Assembly (NCBI RefSeq): GCF_028713515.1
Contig: NZ_JAQTOD010000002.1
Coordinates: 62,001 to 126,000, forward strand
Reading direction: 5' to 3'
From: Sulfurimonas sp.
GTDB taxonomy: Bacteria > Campylobacterota > Campylobacteria > Campylobacterales > Sulfurimonadaceae
Length of the DNA: 64,000 nucleotides
Notes under the pieces: generated by a model
What the model was told of the DNA's origin: nothing
What the model saw: only the letters and a program-made list of their open reading frames with translations
Database searches by the model: none
Position numbers and translations under genes: made by a program
In this document: positions 38,766-46,347 of the stretch, in pieces
How the letters are laid out: the number at the start of each line of letters is the position of its first letter
Numbering within the stretch: the stretch's first letter is position 1

Positions 38766-41243
38766 CTACATTATTCCATCGTTTATTTCAGCTAATTCAG
38801 TCCTTGCCACAATAGCATCGTATCCGCCAACATATTCACTTAGTTTATCTCCACCAGCATAAGTCAAACTCCCCTCTTCAAATCTTTTAAAAGCGAAAAT
38901 TGCAGAGTTCATAACTTGTGAATTAAAAACACCAATCTCAGCAAGAAGCTCAAAATCTTTAACTTTCAAACCTGTTACCTTTGTAAAAAGCTCAGGCTCA
39001 AGCTCCGTAATAACATCTTGAAGTGTCTCTTCGCGATTATCGGTCAAGTACATAAAAATAGGCACTCTAGTGGCAAATTTGATAAGCTTTTCTCTAAGAA
39101 TTTTTTTAAATCCTTGATTCTCTTTTTTCTCTTTTTCTTCTTTTTGCGTAAGCTCACTTTTTTCTTTTTTGGCTTTGTTTAGTGCTTTTTCAGATGAGAT
39201 AACTTTTTTTATATCCTTAGACAAACCTCTAAACGCTTCTATATTTTCTAAGGCATCCATAGCTATATCATTGTTTAAAAGTTTTTCAAGCGTCATATTG
39301 TCTACATTTACCAGTTGAGCACTTTGCCATCTTTTTGCAAGCATGGTTGAAGCTGTTCCTGAAGCTACTATGTCAAGCAATTCTCCTGCATTAAGTTCTG
39401 TCATTGAGTAGCCGTCATAACAAAGTACTGGTAAAAATTTTATAAACTCTTCTACTCTTTTTTCAGGACTACTCGTATCTTTTAAATCAAGTCTTGCACT
39501 ATATTCAGAGATGAGCTGTAAAGCACGGTTTGGTGCAAAATCAAAAACATAACATATTGTTTTTAATATTTCAGATTTATTTGGTGATTTTTTATCTATA
39601 TTTTTCACACTCCACGGTGTTTGTACACGAAATGCGGCTTGAAAATAGGTTTCTGGACTTGATGTATTGCGAAGCATAAAAATTCCACTCCATGGAGGCA
39701 CGGAGACACCTGTTGTAAGTTTTCCACATGAAAGCGTTATTGTTTTTGTTTTCAGTGGATTTTTCATCGCTTTTTTTACAGGAGGTAAAGCTTTTTCTCC
39801 TATTCCTGCCCCCGCTCCAGCGGCAATTATTATATGATAATCATGATAAAATGTATTTACCTTGGCTTTAAGTAACTTGTCCATTGCAAAACATGAAGCC
39901 ACAGAGGGCAAAAACCAAAAAGTATGCAATAGCGTATTCAAAAGTCTCGTATCCTCAAAGGGTATCGGCGGTTTTATTGCGTCACTTCCTGCTATCGGGT
40001 TAGCAGACATGTGTTGTCCTCTAATAAGATTAAGCCACTTTTGCACCTCATTTTCATACTTAAAAATTTCATTTTCTGCTTTGAAAAATTCACTCAAATC
40101 AAACTCGTTATTCTCTCCCTTGAGTGCTACCTCTCGTATATCTTCAGGCATTTGATAAGTCATGAGCGTCATTTGAGGTAAAGAAGCATAAGGGTTTTCA
40201 CCTTGAAGCTTCTCATTCCAAAGAGTTTTTTCTCTTTGTTCATCTGAATAAGTCCAGTTAAATATCTGATCTTCCAAAAACTCCCCCGAAGAAACTGCAC
40301 GAAACGGCGTGCCAGAAAGGTACAAAAAAGCATTTACACTTAGTGGAAAAACCTCTTCATTGAGCTCTTCATCTAAAAGTTTATCTTCATTTTTAAACTC
40401 TTTTTGCTCGCTCGGATCGCCATCATACAAGTCTCTTGCACTATCTCGCCATGACCCAAAATGATACTCATCTAAAATACAGCAATCCCAATCAGTCAAG
40501 TGTGCAGCTTCAAGTCTCTCTTTTATTTTTCCATCTTTTGTTTTGCCTAAAATGTCCTGAAATGAAGCGAACCAAACAAATGGTTTACTCTCATCTATGC
40601 CATCAAAACTCTCTCCACTTCCGATAAACTGCCAACCATCAAAATCTACATGTGAAGCCAAATCTTCTCTCCATGCATTTTGTACAGCTGGCTTATAAGT
40701 AAGTACCAAAATCTTTGTCCATCCCATGTTGAGAGCTAATTGATAGCTTGCAAATGTTTTTCCAAATCGCATTTTTGCATTCCACAAAAAGTGTGGAGCT
40801 TTTTTCTCTTTTGATTTTGAATATCTGTCAAAATATTCACTTGTTACTCTTACTGCTTCGGCTTGTTCTGGTCTCATGGGAAAGTTTGATGCTCTTGTTT
40901 GTTGCACTGTTGTGTTGGATTTTATCTCATTGATAACACTTTTTATATCTTTGACATTGCATTTAAACCACTCGCCATTAACCCTCTCAAAACCTTTTTG
41001 TTCCAATCTTCTATGCACTTCATGGTCGTCAAAAAATAGATCATTATCATCTACGGCAACTTCATCTAAGAGTATCTCATAAGGATTTTTATGTGGAGAT
41101 TTTGTAGGAAACTGTTCAGAGATTCGCACATCAACATCTCTGGTGGTATAGCCAATTTTCAGAAATCCTTTGTGTTTAAATTCTGGTGTTGTATAGGCAT
41201 AGATTTTTGGCTTTACAGGAGCGGCGATGTTCTCTTTTGCCAT
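38766..41243 (-). CDS. GIY-YIG (T5orf172-like) nuclease fused to SF2 helicase
   Basis: An 825-residue protein that looks like the restriction and translocation subunit of a modification-linked system. Residues about 10-105 form a GIY-YIG/T5orf172-type nuclease: YAYTTPEF, FLKIGYTTRDVDVRI with the Arg, and HEVHRRLEQ plus NGEWF with the catalytic Glu. A helicase follows (about 120-700): motif I MRFGKTF, motif II LDEYH, SGTPF, and a motif VI-like FQAAFRV. The last 150 residues are helical and lysine-rich. The ATG overlaps the stop of the methylase gene as TAATG, so the two are coupled. Known R-M types pair SF2 helicases with other nucleases more often. Confidence 0.82.
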   Translation of the reverse strand: MAKENIAAPVKPKIYAYTTPEFKHKGFLKIGYTTRDVDVRISEQFPTKSPHKNPYEILLDEVAVDDNDLFFDDHEVHRRLEQKGFERVNGEWFKCNVKDIKSVINEIKSNTTVQQTRASNFPMRPEQAEAVRVTSEYFDRYSKSKEKKAPHFLWNAKMRFGKTFASYQLALNMGWTKILVLTYKPAVQNAWREDLASHVDFDGWQFIGSGESFDGIDESKPFVWFASFQDILGKTKDGKIKERLEAAHLTDWDCCILDEYHFGSWRDSARDLYDGDPSEQKEFKNEDKLLDEELNEEVFPLSVNAFLYLSGTPFRAVSSGEFLEDQIFNWTYSDEQREKTLWNEKLQGENPYASLPQMTLMTYQMPEDIREVALKGENNEFDLSEFFKAENEIFKYENEVQKWLNLIRGQHMSANPIAGSDAIKPPIPFEDTRLLNTLLHTFWFLPSVASCFAMDKLLKAKVNTFYHDYHIIIAAGAGAGIGEKALPPVKKAMKNPLKTKTITLSCGKLTTGVSVPPWSGIFMLRNTSSPETYFQAAFRVQTPWSVKNIDKKSPNKSEILKTICYVFDFAPNRALQLISEYSARLDLKDTSSPEKRVEEFIKFLPVLCYDGYSMTELNAGELLDIVASGTASTMLAKRWQSAQLVNVDNMTLEKLLNNDIAMDALENIEAFRGLSKDIKKVISSEKALNKAKKEKSELTQKEEKEKKENQGFKKILREKLIKFATRVPIFMYLTDNREETLQDVITELEPELFTKVTGLKVKDFELLAEIGVFNSQVMNSAIFAFKRFEEGSLTYAGGDKLSEYVGGYDAIVARTELAEINDGIM

Positions 41244-42745
41244 TACAACATCTCCTTAATCATGCTCTCTATAAAAGCTATCTCATCTTTTGTAAGTGCA
41301 TATCTTTCATAAAGTTTTTTATCGCTCCACTCTATTTTCATATCTAGTTTTGGAACAAATATAAGAGTCTTTGATGGCATATCTTGAGTAGATTTGATCA
41401 AAGAGATTAAAAACCTTACAAATTTTGTTTTTAGATATTTTTCTAGATTTAAGGCTTTTTCAATATTATCATAATAGCCTGCCACTAAATATGTTTCAGT
41501 ACATACTGAATTTGGTTCAACAAAAAAAGGTTTTCCTATGATTTGATGAGGATAACCTTCACCTGCACCGTATGCTTTTGATATTAAAACTTTATACATA
41601 TCTATCCACTCATTATTTTTTACAATGTGTACTGGATTAACATAACCAATAAATTTATTGCCATATATCTTATAATGTCCATCAATTTTTTTAGTTGTTA
41701 TAGTTTTAAAATTTGTTGGTAAACCAAATGGTTTTCGTGAAGAAACTTGTGTATCTAAAGTTACTTCATTTTTACTCTTTACTTTATTTAGAATTGAAAT
41801 TGCTTCATTAAATCTTACAAAAACATCATTTTCATTGAGTGCCCTTTGCATAGGCAATAGTGCGGTACCATTGGATATTGTCCTCACATTACAATCGCCA
41901 TTATGATTTTTATCCCAGAGAAAATAACAAACACCGCCTTTAATTTCTACTCCTGGAAAACACTCACTTGCATTTGGATAATCTACAAGTTCTTTGATGC
42001 GTTTGTCATTGAGCATTGACTCTCTAAAACTATCAAGCCCTTTTCCACCAGCAAACCAACGGCTTGGGATAATCATTGTGAGATATTTTGGATTCATAGC
42101 TTTTGCCTGTTCCACAAACCTATGATAAAGCGGTGAAGCACTTGCTCCATGTCCTCCATCTGAGAGTTGATACGGCGGATTCCCTACGATTACATCAAAT
42201 TTCATATCTCTAAACTCCTCTTTCATCTCTTTATGTATAAATCTATAAGCGTGATTTTCCAAACTATTATCATCAAACACGCCTTTTACAGCTCCACAAT
42301 AAACACATTTAGCATCTTTGTACTCATGTTGCGTATGCTTATAGATGATATTTCCATCTTTCTTATCCATTTTTACAACTGAAAACTCTGCATTGTCTGC
42401 ATTTTTTGTGTAGTACAAACTTCGTCTTGAAATCAGCGATGTTATTTCAGTAATTGCCATCCCAAAAACCATATTTTTGTAAATATGCTCTTTTCTTTCT
42501 AGCTCATTTGGTATTTTTTCTTTTAATCCTTCTAAGAGTCTTTTTGCAATCTCTCGCAAAAATACGCCCGATTTTACACTTGGATCTAAAAACTTTATTT
42601 CAGGATTCAACCACAATTCTTGTGGTAACAAATCCAACATTTCAGCTACAATCTTTGGCGGAGTAAAAACCTCGTCACTGCTTAGGTTGGAGAGACAATC
42701 AAGTATATCTGGAGTGTGTGAACCTGTAATATTGCTAACCAACAT
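41243..42745 (-). CDS. Eco57I-like adenine DNA methyltransferase
   Basis: A 500-residue N6-adenine DNA methylase. The catalytic motif IV is GNPPYQLSDGG (about residue 188) and a SAM-binding motif I is seen as FLDPSVKSGVFL (about residue 51), in which PACGSG is replaced by PSVKSG. An EVFTPP start motif lies at about 26-31, a CVYCGAV zinc-like pair lies at about 150, and the C-terminal half is the likely target recognition part. Its start overlaps the short methylase by 11 nt and its end overlaps the helicase start. Confidence 0.88.
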   Translation of the reverse strand: MLVSNITGSHTPDILDCLSNLSSDEVFTPPKIVAEMLDLLPQELWLNPEIKFLDPSVKSGVFLREIAKRLLEGLKEKIPNELERKEHIYKNMVFGMAITEITSLISRRSLYYTKNADNAEFSVVKMDKKDGNIIYKHTQHEYKDAKCVYCGAVKGVFDDNSLENHAYRFIHKEMKEEFRDMKFDVIVGNPPYQLSDGGHGASASPLYHRFVEQAKAMNPKYLTMIIPSRWFAGGKGLDSFRESMLNDKRIKELVDYPNASECFPGVEIKGGVCYFLWDKNHNGDCNVRTISNGTALLPMQRALNENDVFVRFNEAISILNKVKSKNEVTLDTQVSSRKPFGLPTNFKTITTKKIDGHYKIYGNKFIGYVNPVHIVKNNEWIDMYKVLISKAYGAGEGYPHQIIGKPFFVEPNSVCTETYLVAGYYDNIEKALNLEKYLKTKFVRFLISLIKSTQDMPSKTLIFVPKLDMKIEWSDKKLYERYALTKDEIAFIESMIKEML

Positions 42746-43331
42746 AATCTAGCTCCAAATACTTTGTAATCATATGTTCTTGAATAGGTCGCAGTTTGAA
42801 AAGATAGCTGTTTTGCATACTCAAATCACGAAACAAAAACTCTCTTCTTTTGAAAAAGTAGAGTTTAGGGGATGTAAATTCTGTAAAGATTATGTTGTTT
42901 TGAGGGTTAAGCGTGTCGCCTACTTGAATATTTTTGTTTAACACAAAATCTACACTTTTATAAAATCCGCTATATGGCTTTTTTGTGTTTTGTGAAAAGG
43001 AGTAGTGTTCTATGACAAGAGCATGAAGTCTGGCTTTTGCTTCATTTATATTCTCTTGGCAAATATCAATTCCATAAATGTTTGCAAGTGATTTTATAGT
43101 GTAAAATTCAAAATCTTGCTGTTTTTTATATTTACTAGTTACTGTGTGGAGCTTGCGTTTGAGTATCTCTACTAAAAAATTCCCATTTCCACATGCAGGT
43201 TCCAAATATCTGGTCTCAATCTTTTCAGAGAAATTTTTTGTAAGGTCAAGCATAGCATGTACTTCTCGCTCACTCGTATAAACCTCCGCTAAATCCCTAA
43301 CACGCTCTTTTGATTTTGTTTGTGGAGTCAT
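42735..43331 (-). CDS. Short N6-DNA methylase-like protein (motif I only)
   Basis: A 198-residue protein with the start of an adenine methylase: VYTSEREVHAMLDL, then the SAM-binding motif I in YLEPACGNGNFLVEIL (about residues 43-58) and IYGIDICQENINEAKARL for motif II. The catalytic NPPY motif is not present, and the protein ends soon after, so it may act only in complex with the Eco57I-like methylase or bind SAM as a regulator. ATG at 43331 with GAGGG upstream. It is the first gene of the cassette, read away from the palindromic control region. Confidence 0.78.
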   Translation of the reverse strand: MTPQTKSKERVRDLAEVYTSEREVHAMLDLTKNFSEKIETRYLEPACGNGNFLVEILKRKLHTVTSKYKKQQDFEFYTIKSLANIYGIDICQENINEAKARLHALVIEHYSFSQNTKKPYSGFYKSVDFVLNKNIQVGDTLNPQNNIIFTEFTSPKLYFFKRREFLFRDLSMQNSYLFKLRPIQEHMITKYLELDYVG

Positions 43332-43346
43332 TATTCCCTCTTTTTT

Positions 43347-43366
43347 AATAATTACAAGTAATTATT
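43347..43366. promoter_or_regulatory. Perfect palindrome in the leader of the methylase operon
   Basis: AATAATTAC, two bases, GTAATTATT: a perfect 9-bp inverted repeat, 16 nt before the first methylase ATG and just past the likely transcription start. A site for a dimeric regulator or an mRNA hairpin over the leader. Confidence 0.6.
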
Positions 43367-43375
43367 GCAGAGCAA

Positions 43376-43381
43376 ATTATA
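43376..43381 (-). promoter_or_regulatory. -10 box for the methylase-nuclease operon
   Basis: TATAAT on the minus strand, with expected start near 43369, giving a leader of about 38 nt. The box lies between the two palindromes. Confidence 0.5.
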
Positions 43382-43388
43382 CATACAT

Positions 43389-43430
43389 AGAATTATTACT
43401 TGTTTAAATATATTTAAATGGAATAATTCT
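43389..43430. promoter_or_regulatory. Nested palindrome over the -35 region
   Basis: Outer arms AGAATTATT (43389-43397) and AATAATTCT (43422-43430) are perfect complements; between them lies a perfect 16-bp palindrome TTTAAATATATTTAAA (43403-43418). It covers the -35 area of the methylase promoter and lies 53 nt before the HTH gene start, so it may control both directions. Confidence 0.6.
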
Positions 43431-43483
43431 AATGTTGTTTTATCATCAAGAGACTTGTAAGTTGCTTCTTAAAAAGGTAATTT

Positions 43484-43669
43484 ATGACAAAAAGAGATAT
43501 TGCAGGATTTTTAAATGTGGATATTAAAACGCTCTATAATTGGGAAAAATTCAAGCCAAACCTCTACGAAACAGTTATGAAAGGTTTAGCTTTTGACGAA
43601 ATAGTAGAAGCTCAGAAAGAGAGTTATGAGAAGGCGAAAGAGTTGCAAAATAGATATAAAAAACTTTAA
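43484..43669 (+). CDS. Small HTH-like protein, candidate controller of the R-M cassette
   Basis: A 61-residue protein whose first 30 residues (KRDIAGFLNVDIKTLYNWEKF) form a helix-turn-helix as in MerR or phage-type regulators, followed by a lysine- and glutamate-rich helix. AAAAGG precedes the ATG. It is divergent from the methylase operon across the palindromic region and is of the size of restriction controller (C) proteins, though the sequence is not a typical Xre-type C protein. The regulatory role is inferred. Confidence 0.6.
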   Translation: MTKRDIAGFLNVDIKTLYNWEKFKPNLYETVMKGLAFDEIVEAQKESYEKAKELQNRYKKL

Positions 43670-43831
43670 GATTTGACAACAACTTAAAATGAATATTTAA
43701 GCTCTAAGTTTATACAGATATCTGTTATTTTTATTCAAAGAATTTGGTGTAGGTCATGTTTTGTATTGATTAAATATACTCAATTTATAAGTTGGAATTT
43801 TTTCTAATCTAAAATTATCTAGACTTTGTAG

Positions 43832-43837
43832 TACAAT
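43832..43837 (+). promoter_or_regulatory. -10 box just before the P-type ATPase start
   Basis: TACAAT ends 5 nt before the ATG at 43843. No ribosome binding site is seen, so this mRNA is probably leaderless. Confidence 0.4.
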
Positions 43838-43842
43838 TGTGC

Positions 43843-46347
43843 ATGAACGAAAATAAACTACCTCATGGTCTTAGCGCTGTCGAAGCACTTCAAAGACGCA
43901 ATAAAGAAGGTTTTAATGAGCTAGAGATAAAACATAACCGCTCTACTTTTAAGATAATTCTTGAAGTTGTGCGTGAGCCGATGTTTCTGCTTCTGTTGTC
44001 TGCCGGAGGGATTTATCTCATCATGGGGGATGCTCATGAAGCCGTTATCTTGCTGGGATTTGTCTTTGTCATTATGGGAATTACTATTATTCAAGAGAGA
44101 CGAACAGAAAAAGTCCTTGAGGCACTTCGTGATCTCTCTAGCCCTCGCGCTCTGGTTATTCGTGATGGAGTACAAATTCGAATATCAGGCAGAGAGGTTG
44201 TTCGTGGCGACACTCTTATCTTAAACGAGGGAGACCGCATCCCTGCAGATGGTTTCATTCTCTCCTCGCATGACCTTGCCGCTGATGAGTCTATGCTTAG
44301 TGGCGAATCAGTTGCTATTGCCAAATATGCCGATGATCCCTCAAACAACAAACTCTACGCTGGAACACTCACTATCAGAGGTCAAGCTATCATTGAAGTA
44401 ACTGCCATCGGTGCACTTACTGAACTTGGAAAAATCGGTAAATCTCTGCAGAGTATCGAAAATGAAGCATCTCCTCTACAAAAAGAGACCGCTCTGCTAA
44501 CCAAGCATCTTGCAATTGTTGGCATAGCTCTATGTTTTGTCGTAATTATTCTATTTGTTCTGTTTCGTGGAGGATGGCTAGAGGGAATATTGGCAGGTAT
44601 TACACTTGCCATGGGAATACTTCCTCAAGAATTTCCCGTTATTATGATTATCTTCATGGCACTTGGTGCTAGGCGTATTGCACAGCATAATGTTCTCACT
44701 CGTCGTCTTAGCGCTATTGAAACGCTAGGTAAAACGACTGTTTTATGTGTTGATAAGACAGGAACTCTAACCAAAAATCAGATGGCGGTCGCCGCACTGG
44801 CGCTTAGGGATAAATTTTTAAGTATTGCTAATCTAGATGAGCTCCCTGAAGATTTTCATGAGATTGTTGAATATTGCATCCTAGCCAGCCAAACTGACCC
44901 TCATGATCCTATGGAAAAAGCTTTTTATACACTAGCAAATAGATATTTACTCCACACCGAGCATCTTCACTTTGATTGGAATCTAACTAAAGAGTATGAA
45001 CTGGCTCCAGACCTCTTGGCTATGTCACATTTATGGCAGATTCAAAAGCAGCATCACCATCCGGTAGCAACTAAAGGAGCTCCTGAAGCAATTATTGACC
45101 TTTGTCATCTTGATGCTCAAAAAAGAGATGAAATTATGCAGCAAGTGGCAGCAATGGCGGATCAAGGGTTGCGTGTTCTGGGAGTAGCTAAAGCAGTTCA
45201 TATTGGGGAAGAGTGGCCAGCCATCCAACATGACTTTGAATTTGAATTTTTAGGTCTTGTCGGGCTTGCAGATCCGTTGCGTGATGAAGTTCCACAAGCT
45301 GCAGTTGAGTGTCGCAGTGCAGGCATTCGCATCGTCATGATTACTGGTGACCATCCAAGAACCGCAAAAGCAATAGCTAAACAGGCAGGGATTGACTCAA
45401 CAACCGTCATAACAGGGGCAGAACTAGAAACTCTCCATGGAGATGAATTGGCAGCTTGTATACAAAAAGCCTCTGTTTTTGCCCGTGTATCACCTCAGCA
45501 GAAATTACAAATAGTGGAAGCACTAAAAAGTAATGGCGAAATCGTTGCTATGACCGGCGATGGAGTCAATGATGCTCCAGCCCTTAAATCTGCTCATATT
45601 GGCATAGCTATGGGAAAAAGAGGAACAGATGTTGCCCGCGAGGCCGCCTCCCTTGTTTTACTAGAAGATAATTTTGGCGCCATAGTTGAGGCAATCAAAC
45701 TTGGCAGACGCATCTTTAACAACCTGCGCCACGCTATGATTTATACAATCGCCGTGCATATTCCCATCATTGGGCTATCAATTCTCCCCATTATCTTTGG
45801 CTTGCCACTAGTTCTCGCACCGATTCATATTGTCTTTTTAGAACTGATTATTGACCCTGCATGTTCTGTTGTGTTTGAGGCAGAAGAAGCCTCAGCAGAT
45901 ATTATGGCACACCCTCCAAGACTCTCTCATGAGCATCTGATTTCATCAAAACATCTTATACTTAGTCTGCTGCAAGGTGGTCTTGCTGCCATCGCCGTTG
46001 CCCTGCTCTACTCGACATCACTGAGCGTCGGTGTCGATGTGGCAGAGGCTCGCGCCATGGCTTTTATAGCTCTCGCTAGTGCAAATACGGTTCTAATCTT
46101 TAACAGTCGATCACATGAGCACTCTTTTCGTCAATCATTTACCGCTGTTTCCACTATCGGCCTCTGGGTTATCTCCACTACACTCTTAAGCCTAATGGCC
46201 ATCACCATAATGCCATCTATCGCTATCTACTTCTCATTTGCTCCACCGTCTCTGTCTAATTGGCTCATCGCCTTTGGTACAGGTATCAGCATGTTTGTTT
46301 TATTTGAAATAGTGAAAAAGGGTGTTTTATCTTATTCAAGTAGATAA
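43843..46347 (+). CDS. P-type cation-transporting ATPase (P2-like)
   Basis: An 834-residue membrane pump. The phosphorylation motif CVDKTGTLTKNQ lies near residue 305, the N-domain KGAPEAI near 410, and TGDGVNDAPALK near 570. About ten membrane helices are seen. The M4 motif reads GILPQEFPV rather than PEGLP, and the M6 region reads LIIDPACSVVFEAEEA, so it belongs to a less studied group and the ion cannot be named (Ca2+ or another cation). Its codons use more C and G than the neighbours, which suggests transfer. The ATG at 43843 is used; its end overlaps the MoxR gene by 16 nt in convergent order. Confidence 0.85.
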   Translation: MNENKLPHGLSAVEALQRRNKEGFNELEIKHNRSTFKIILEVVREPMFLLLLSAGGIYLIMGDAHEAVILLGFVFVIMGITIIQERRTEKVLEALRDLSSPRALVIRDGVQIRISGREVVRGDTLILNEGDRIPADGFILSSHDLAADESMLSGESVAIAKYADDPSNNKLYAGTLTIRGQAIIEVTAIGALTELGKIGKSLQSIENEASPLQKETALLTKHLAIVGIALCFVVIILFVLFRGGWLEGILAGITLAMGILPQEFPVIMIIFMALGARRIAQHNVLTRRLSAIETLGKTTVLCVDKTGTLTKNQMAVAALALRDKFLSIANLDELPEDFHEIVEYCILASQTDPHDPMEKAFYTLANRYLLHTEHLHFDWNLTKEYELAPDLLAMSHLWQIQKQHHHPVATKGAPEAIIDLCHLDAQKRDEIMQQVAAMADQGLRVLGVAKAVHIGEEWPAIQHDFEFEFLGLVGLADPLRDEVPQAAVECRSAGIRIVMITGDHPRTAKAIAKQAGIDSTTVITGAELETLHGDELAACIQKASVFARVSPQQKLQIVEALKSNGEIVAMTGDGVNDAPALKSAHIGIAMGKRGTDVAREAASLVLLEDNFGAIVEAIKLGRRIFNNLRHAMIYTIAVHIPIIGLSILPIIFGLPLVLAPIHIVFLELIIDPACSVVFEAEEASADIMAHPPRLSHEHLISSKHLILSLLQGGLAAIAVALLYSTSLSVGVDVAEARAMAFIALASANTVLIFNSRSHEHSFRQSFTAVSTIGLWVISTTLLSLMAITIMPSIAIYFSFAPPSLSNWLIAFGTGISMFVLFEIVKKGVLSYSSR

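What the first reader, a model, noticed from the sequence alone, without database searches (positions are those of the whole stretch)
38766..43669. R-M-like cassette: GIY-YIG nuclease fused to SF2 helicase, two methylases, small HTH gene
Three overlapping minus-strand genes (11-nt overlap, then TAATG) encode a short methylase with motif I but no NPPY, an Eco57I-like methylase with NPPY but a changed motif I (PSVKSG), and an 825-residue protein with a T5orf172/GIY-YIG nuclease at the front and an SF2 helicase behind. The two methylases look complementary, as if motif I and NPPY work in trans. Sharing of this set with a divergent HTH gene suggests a self-contained defence island. Related Eco57I-like methylases are known; the exact layout may not be described.
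Basis: partly seen in the sequence, partly recalled or inferred. Interest (0 to 1): 0.65.

Follow-up and report, generated by a model that had tools for sequence, protein, structure and literature searches.

The report
DrdVI-type split-methylase restriction system
These three genes are a bacterial DNA-defence system of an already described kind (DrdVI-type), in which the protective methylating enzyme is divided between two proteins, one with the cofactor-binding signature and the other with the catalytic one; the layout is known, but the conservation of that division across more than 120 relatives helps show how such enzymes may work.

Summary
In detail: three overlapping minus-strand genes encode a 198-aa methylase half (M1), a 500-aa methylase (M2) and an 825-aa GIY-YIG/SF2-helicase protein (R), with a divergent 61-aa HTH gene. 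The layout is not new. It is the DrdVI kind of Type IIG R-M system (M1 38%, M2 49%, R 52% identical to the pDrdVI locus), called 'split methylase/RM genes' in the literature, where M1+M2 of DrdVI (GCAGCC) and MaeIV (GCACY) were expressed together in E. coli and gave m6A. Natural variants drop M2's N-terminal half and fuse M1 straight to the catalytic half, or keep M1 beside an M2 that begins just before NPPY. How M1 contacts M2 is unresolved. The HTH gene is not part of DrdVI systems: with its 150-bp promoter it occurs in this bacterial family in front of unrelated R-M systems (Type III, EcoRI-type) and some other genes.

The parts
42735..43331 (-). M1: 198-aa cofactor-binding half-methylase (motifs X, I, II, III; no NPPY)
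   Evidence: 38% identical to M1 of the pDrdVI locus
43176..43202 (-). M1 motif I, EPACGNGNF (residues 44-52)
41243..42745 (-). M2: 500-aa Eco57I-type methylase, catalytic half plus target recognition region, with an altered cofactor half
   Evidence: AlphaFold pLDDT 90.6, CamA Z 22.6 over 13-484; 49% identical to M2 of pDrdVI
42560..42586 (-). M2 altered motif I, DPSVKSGVF (residues 54-62; Lys58 in 123/123)
42170..42181 (-). M2 catalytic motif IV, NPPY (residues 189-192)
38766..41243 (-). R: 825-aa GIY-YIG (T5orf172) nuclease fused to SF2 helicase/translocase
   Evidence: 52% identical to R of pDrdVI
40923..41204 (-). T5orf172/GIY-YIG domain of R (residues 14-107; Y15, Y17, K29, G31, R40, E91 conserved)
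40755..40763 (-). Walker A GKT (161-163) of the SF2 motor
40461..40472 (-). Walker B DEYH (258-261) of the SF2 motor
43332..43483 (.). divergent promoter region, 78-85% identical to regions in front of Type III mod genes in related genomes
43484..43669 (+). 61-aa HTH-like protein, a regulator candidate shared with other R-M systems of the family; not a DrdVI component

Best explanation
An intact, probably functional R-M system of the DrdVI kind. M1 and M2 together form one m6A methyltransferase that marks one strand of a short asymmetric site (the site cannot be read from sequence). M1 brings the S-adenosylmethionine (SAM)-binding half (motifs I-III) and M2 brings the catalytic NPPY half and the target-recognition region. 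M2 also keeps a copy of the M1-type half whose cofactor residues are altered (GxG to KSG, motif II acid to Ala/Gly). R is recruited to unmethylated sites, translocates with its SF2 motor and cuts with its GIY-YIG domain. Shown: gene order, motif complementarity over 123 M1 and 123 M2 proteins, absence of M2's N-terminal half in natural variants; from papers: co-expressed M1+M2 of DrdVI and MaeIV methylate in E. coli. Inferred: SAM held by M1 during catalysis, the M1-M2 contact, translocation-dependent cleavage, regulation by the HTH protein.
For: pDrdVI locus has the same three genes in the same order, identities 38/49/52%. PMC6430315: M1-2.DrdVI, GCAGCC, m6A, IIG, cloned in E. coli. [quoted passage not shown] PMC4996451: DrdVI is 'a fused translocase and REase'. 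123 M1: E-P-x-x-G-x-G with Gly48 123/123, motif II D/E 123/123, motif III D/N 123/123; 123 M2: Lys58 123/123, motif II acid replaced by A/G/S/P in 123/123, NPP[YF] 123/123. M1 next to 123 of 125 KSG-type M2; 0 of 146 M1 have NPPx; of 11 relatives with GxG in cis only one, weak, has a separate M1-like neighbour; Fisher p about 2e-12, not corrected for relatedness. M1-half fused to M2 catalytic half without the KSG half in L134 and L135, each sister to a different KSG protein (support 0.95 and 1.0); M2 starting 8-13 residues before NPPY beside M1 in L137, L161, L163, L165, L168. M2's N-half is homologous to M1 (hhalign probability 98.3, E 1.4e-14).
Against: AlphaFold folds M2 alone into a complete methyltransferase that aligns end to end with CamA, so M1's half has no obvious free slot beside NPPY. 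In the model of the natural fusion L135 (pTM 0.68) the two halves match known structures separately, apart from one poor 12 A match to BrxX spanning both, so no composite fold is seen; its alignment rows were unpaired. A joint M1+M2 model could not be made. Lys58 is invariant, so it may be functional rather than decayed. Two KSG-type M2s (L128, L149) have no M1 in the stretch held. No paper found here tested M1 or M2 alone.
Confidence: 0.75

Rival explanations
1. M2 is the whole methyltransferase: DPxxKSG is a working, unusual SAM site, and M1 is an accessory subunit (DNA bending, stability, or allosteric SAM sensing).
For: M2 alone models as a complete fold matching CamA (Z 22.6); Lys58 is invariant; M.TaqI also lacks the first Gly of motif I (from memory).
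Against: M2 also loses the motif II acid in 123/123 while M1 keeps every cofactor motif; several natural M2s lack the KSG half altogether and occur with M1 next door or fused.
Confidence: 0.17
2. The cassette is decayed or silent: an R-M remnant like the DrdVI-like genes of Bibersteinia or DnmA-YeeB-YeeC of Bacillus subtilis.
For: Both those systems are reported as inactive or fragmented in the hosts studied.
Against: All three window genes are full length, tightly overlapping, with every conserved catalytic residue.
Confidence: 0.08

Closest known systems
DrdVI (Deinococcus wulumuqiensis 479, plasmid pDrdVI; PMC6430315)
   Same: Three genes in the same order, M1 with EPACGSGNF, M2 with DPCTKSGVF and NPPY, R with N-terminal GIY-YIG-like region and helicase; 38/49/52% identity
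   Different: Sequence specificity unknown here; no divergent HTH gene of the window's kind found at DrdVI-type loci
MaeIV (Methanococcus aeolicus; PMC10113651)
   Same: M1/M2 'split methylase' said by its authors to be similar to DrdVI
   Different: Archaeal; sequence not compared here
PADLOC PDLC03626 REase_MTase_IIG
   Same: R and M2 match consecutive stretches of this 1359-aa model
   Different: Fused in one chain in that model and in L013, L015, L131 and others; separate genes here
DnmA-YeeB-YeeC (Bacillus subtilis; PMC9973331)
   Same: Methylase + SF2 helicase + T5orf172 inventory
   Different: Nuclease and helicase on separate genes, DnmA is an MmeI-like methylase; not compared by sequence here
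Type ISP enzymes (LlaGI, LlaBIII)
   Same: Nuclease, SF2 translocase, adenine methylase and recognition region (from memory); M2 model matches both (Z about 19)
   Different: Single chain; the different nuclease and the complete cofactor site are from memory

Membership tests
DrdVI-type split-methylase Type IIG | M1-M2-R gene order with M1 cofactor half | tested here: met
DrdVI-type split-methylase Type IIG | R with GIY-YIG/T5orf172 domain fused to SF2 translocase | tested here: met
DrdVI-type split-methylase Type IIG | Sequence homology of all three proteins to DrdVI | tested here: met
   38/49/52% identity
DrdVI-type split-methylase Type IIG | m6A at a short asymmetric site by co-expressed M1+M2 | not testable with these tools
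   shown for DrdVI and MaeIV in papers
Type ISP | all functions in one polypeptide | tested here: not met
   three separate genes
Type III R-M | Mod subunit of the N6_N4_Mtase (beta) type plus ResIII Res | tested here: not met
   M2 matches Eco57I, not N6_N4_Mtase, and models as a gamma-type fold
C-protein controlled R-M | HTH_3-type controller that is part of the R-M system | tested here: not met
   no Pfam match for the HTH gene even at E 0.5; absent from 173 DrdVI-type and related loci

The most novel reading that the evidence does not exclude
An obligately split adenine methyltransferase in which SAM is held by one protein (M1) and the methyl group is transferred by the NPPY of another (M2) that keeps a conserved non-binding copy of the cofactor half, replaceable by M1 as the natural fusions suggest; in this bacterial family such systems can also be put under a portable HTH-plus-promoter cassette shared with unrelated R-M classes.
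Probability: 0.4. Interest if true: 0.6.

Novelty: new member of a known kind. Interest (0 to 1): 0.4.

Why it matters
The conserved division of motifs makes a clear prediction about an enzyme whose cofactor site and catalytic site lie on different proteins, and the natural fusions offer single-chain constructs to test it. The HTH-promoter cassette found in front of several R-M classes suggests a shared regulator that could be tested directly.

Tried and rejected
AlphaFold of the natural fusion L135 did not place the halves together. PDB sequence searches: nothing for R even with a profile, nothing for single M1 or M2, weak profile hits only (3ufb, MmeI, BrxX). A triple-repeat operator in the HTH intergenic region was not better than shuffled sequence in the window (34 of 60 shuffles reach it), so no operator is claimed. 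Considered and rejected: Type III, Type ISP, C-protein control, M1 as a broken gene copy.

Full report
What is there. Reading down the minus strand from 43331: M1 (198 aa), M2 (500 aa, 11-nt overlap) and R (825 aa, TAATG junction), with a divergent 61-aa HTH gene 152 bp upstream of M1. Pfam places T5orf172/MUG113 at the front of R and Eco57I in M2; 27 of 30 R proteins scanned also match ResIII, though the window's own does not. R's GIY-YIG residues (Y15, Y17, K29, G31, R40, E91) and SF2 motifs are conserved in 104 aligned proteins.

What it is. Searches of plasmids and phages found the same order M1-M2-R, among others on pDrdVI of Deinococcus wulumuqiensis NEB 479. The genome paper lists M1-2.DrdVI, GCAGCC, m6A, type IIG, cloned in E. 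coli (PMC6430315); [quoted passage not shown] The window proteins are 38, 49 and 52% identical to the three pDrdVI proteins. PADLOC model PDLC03626 (Type IIG, 1359 aa) matches R and M2 in sequence, and one-chain R-M2 fusions with a separate M1 exist (L013, L015, L131, L136, L138, L140-L142).

Do the methylases complement each other? Over 123 M1 proteins the cofactor motifs are intact (Gly48 123/123; motif II acid 123/123; motif III D/N 123/123); a tally over 146 M1 neighbours finds no NPPx. Over 123 M2 proteins NPP[YF] is intact, motif I is DPxxK(S/T/N)G with an invariant Lys, and the motif II acid is replaced by A, G, S or P in every one. An M1 lies next door for 123 of the 125 KSG-type M2s whose upstream DNA is held (two, L128 and L149, lack it); of 11 relatives with GxG in cis only one, weak, has a separate M1-like neighbour. 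Fisher p is about 2e-12, but the proteins are related, so this overstates the evidence. M2's N-terminal half is homologous to M1.

Natural variants. In L134 and L135 an M1 half runs directly into an M2 catalytic half, with no KSG half; each is sister to a different KSG protein in a FastTree tree of the catalytic half (support 0.95 and 1.0), so the fusions look independent. In L137, L161, L163, L165 and L168 M2 begins just before NPPY with M1 immediately upstream. PHROG 11371 matches M2's end and M1 in the reverse order within one profile. These favour M1 supplying the cofactor half. These variants come from viral contigs, some distant, and none has been tested.

Structure. AlphaFold of window M2 (pLDDT 90.6, pTM 0.88) gives a complete methyltransferase aligned with CamA over residues 13-484 (Z 22.6, rmsd 4.5, 407 aligned). 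So M2 alone has both halves of the fold, one with altered cofactor residues, and how M1 reaches the NPPY site is not shown. The L135 fusion model is good within each half but uncertain between them (pTM 0.68), and the halves match solved structures separately, apart from one 12 A match to BrxX spanning both. The contact between M1 and M2 is the main open point.

Surroundings. The cassette, with a P-type ATPase gene not found at E 1e-150 in 59 other genomes of the genus, lies between a ferritin-like gene and W46332; in G252 these two are neighbours, an empty site. In G433, G432 and G287 the region around the same slot holds Type III mod/res genes or an EcoRI-type methylase plus GmrSD/HNH gene. 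In all three, and at other places in the family, a relative of the window's HTH gene lies divergent to the first R-M gene: of 28 loci examined, window included, 10 face Type III mod-like genes, 6 EcoRI-type methylases, 1 a helicase, 1 the DrdVI-type set, and the rest other genes or none (the classes rest on clustering by BLAST, with Pfam/PADLOC run on members from L194, L195, L228, L229 and L240 only). The 150-bp region between them is 126/149 identical between the window and L228, whose downstream gene is a Type III mod (z about 23 against shuffles). The HTH gene is absent from 173 loci of the DrdVI type and its relatives. It is therefore a lineage-specific regulator candidate that can be coupled to different R-M systems, not a part of the DrdVI system.

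Verdict. A new member of a known kind, with an observation that survives and a mechanistic idea that gains support.

Noticed in passing
43332-43669; L194, L195, L196, L199, L200, L228-L233, L236, L243, L246: A 61-65 aa HTH gene with its roughly 150-bp divergent promoter region recurs in the family in front of Type III and EcoRI-type R-M genes and this DrdVI-type set (18 of 28 loci with R-M or helicase genes); the rest face other genes.
   Followed up: partly
38766-46347 against L202 (G252), L194, L195, L200: Slot near ferritin/DUF2201 genes: empty in one relative, filled with different R-M systems in others.
   Followed up: partly
43837-46347: P-type cation ATPase of higher GC (43-45%) beside the cassette, without a match at E 1e-150 in 59 other genomes of the genus; looks acquired.
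   Followed up: no
41243-42745, M2 residues 140-171: Invariant His140, Cys147, Cys150 and His171 in 76 aligned KSG-type M2s, a possible zinc site between the altered cofactor half and NPPY.
   Followed up: no
L128:2775-5965: A KSG-type M2 with R but no M1 in the stretch held; upstream are a 727-aa protein whose start resembles EcoRI-type methylases and a 334-aa protein.
   Followed up: no
M1/M2 junctions in 94 loci: M2 is in the +1 frame relative to M1 in 72 of 94 overlapping junctions (8, 11, 14 nt and so on), as expected for translational coupling.
   Followed up: no
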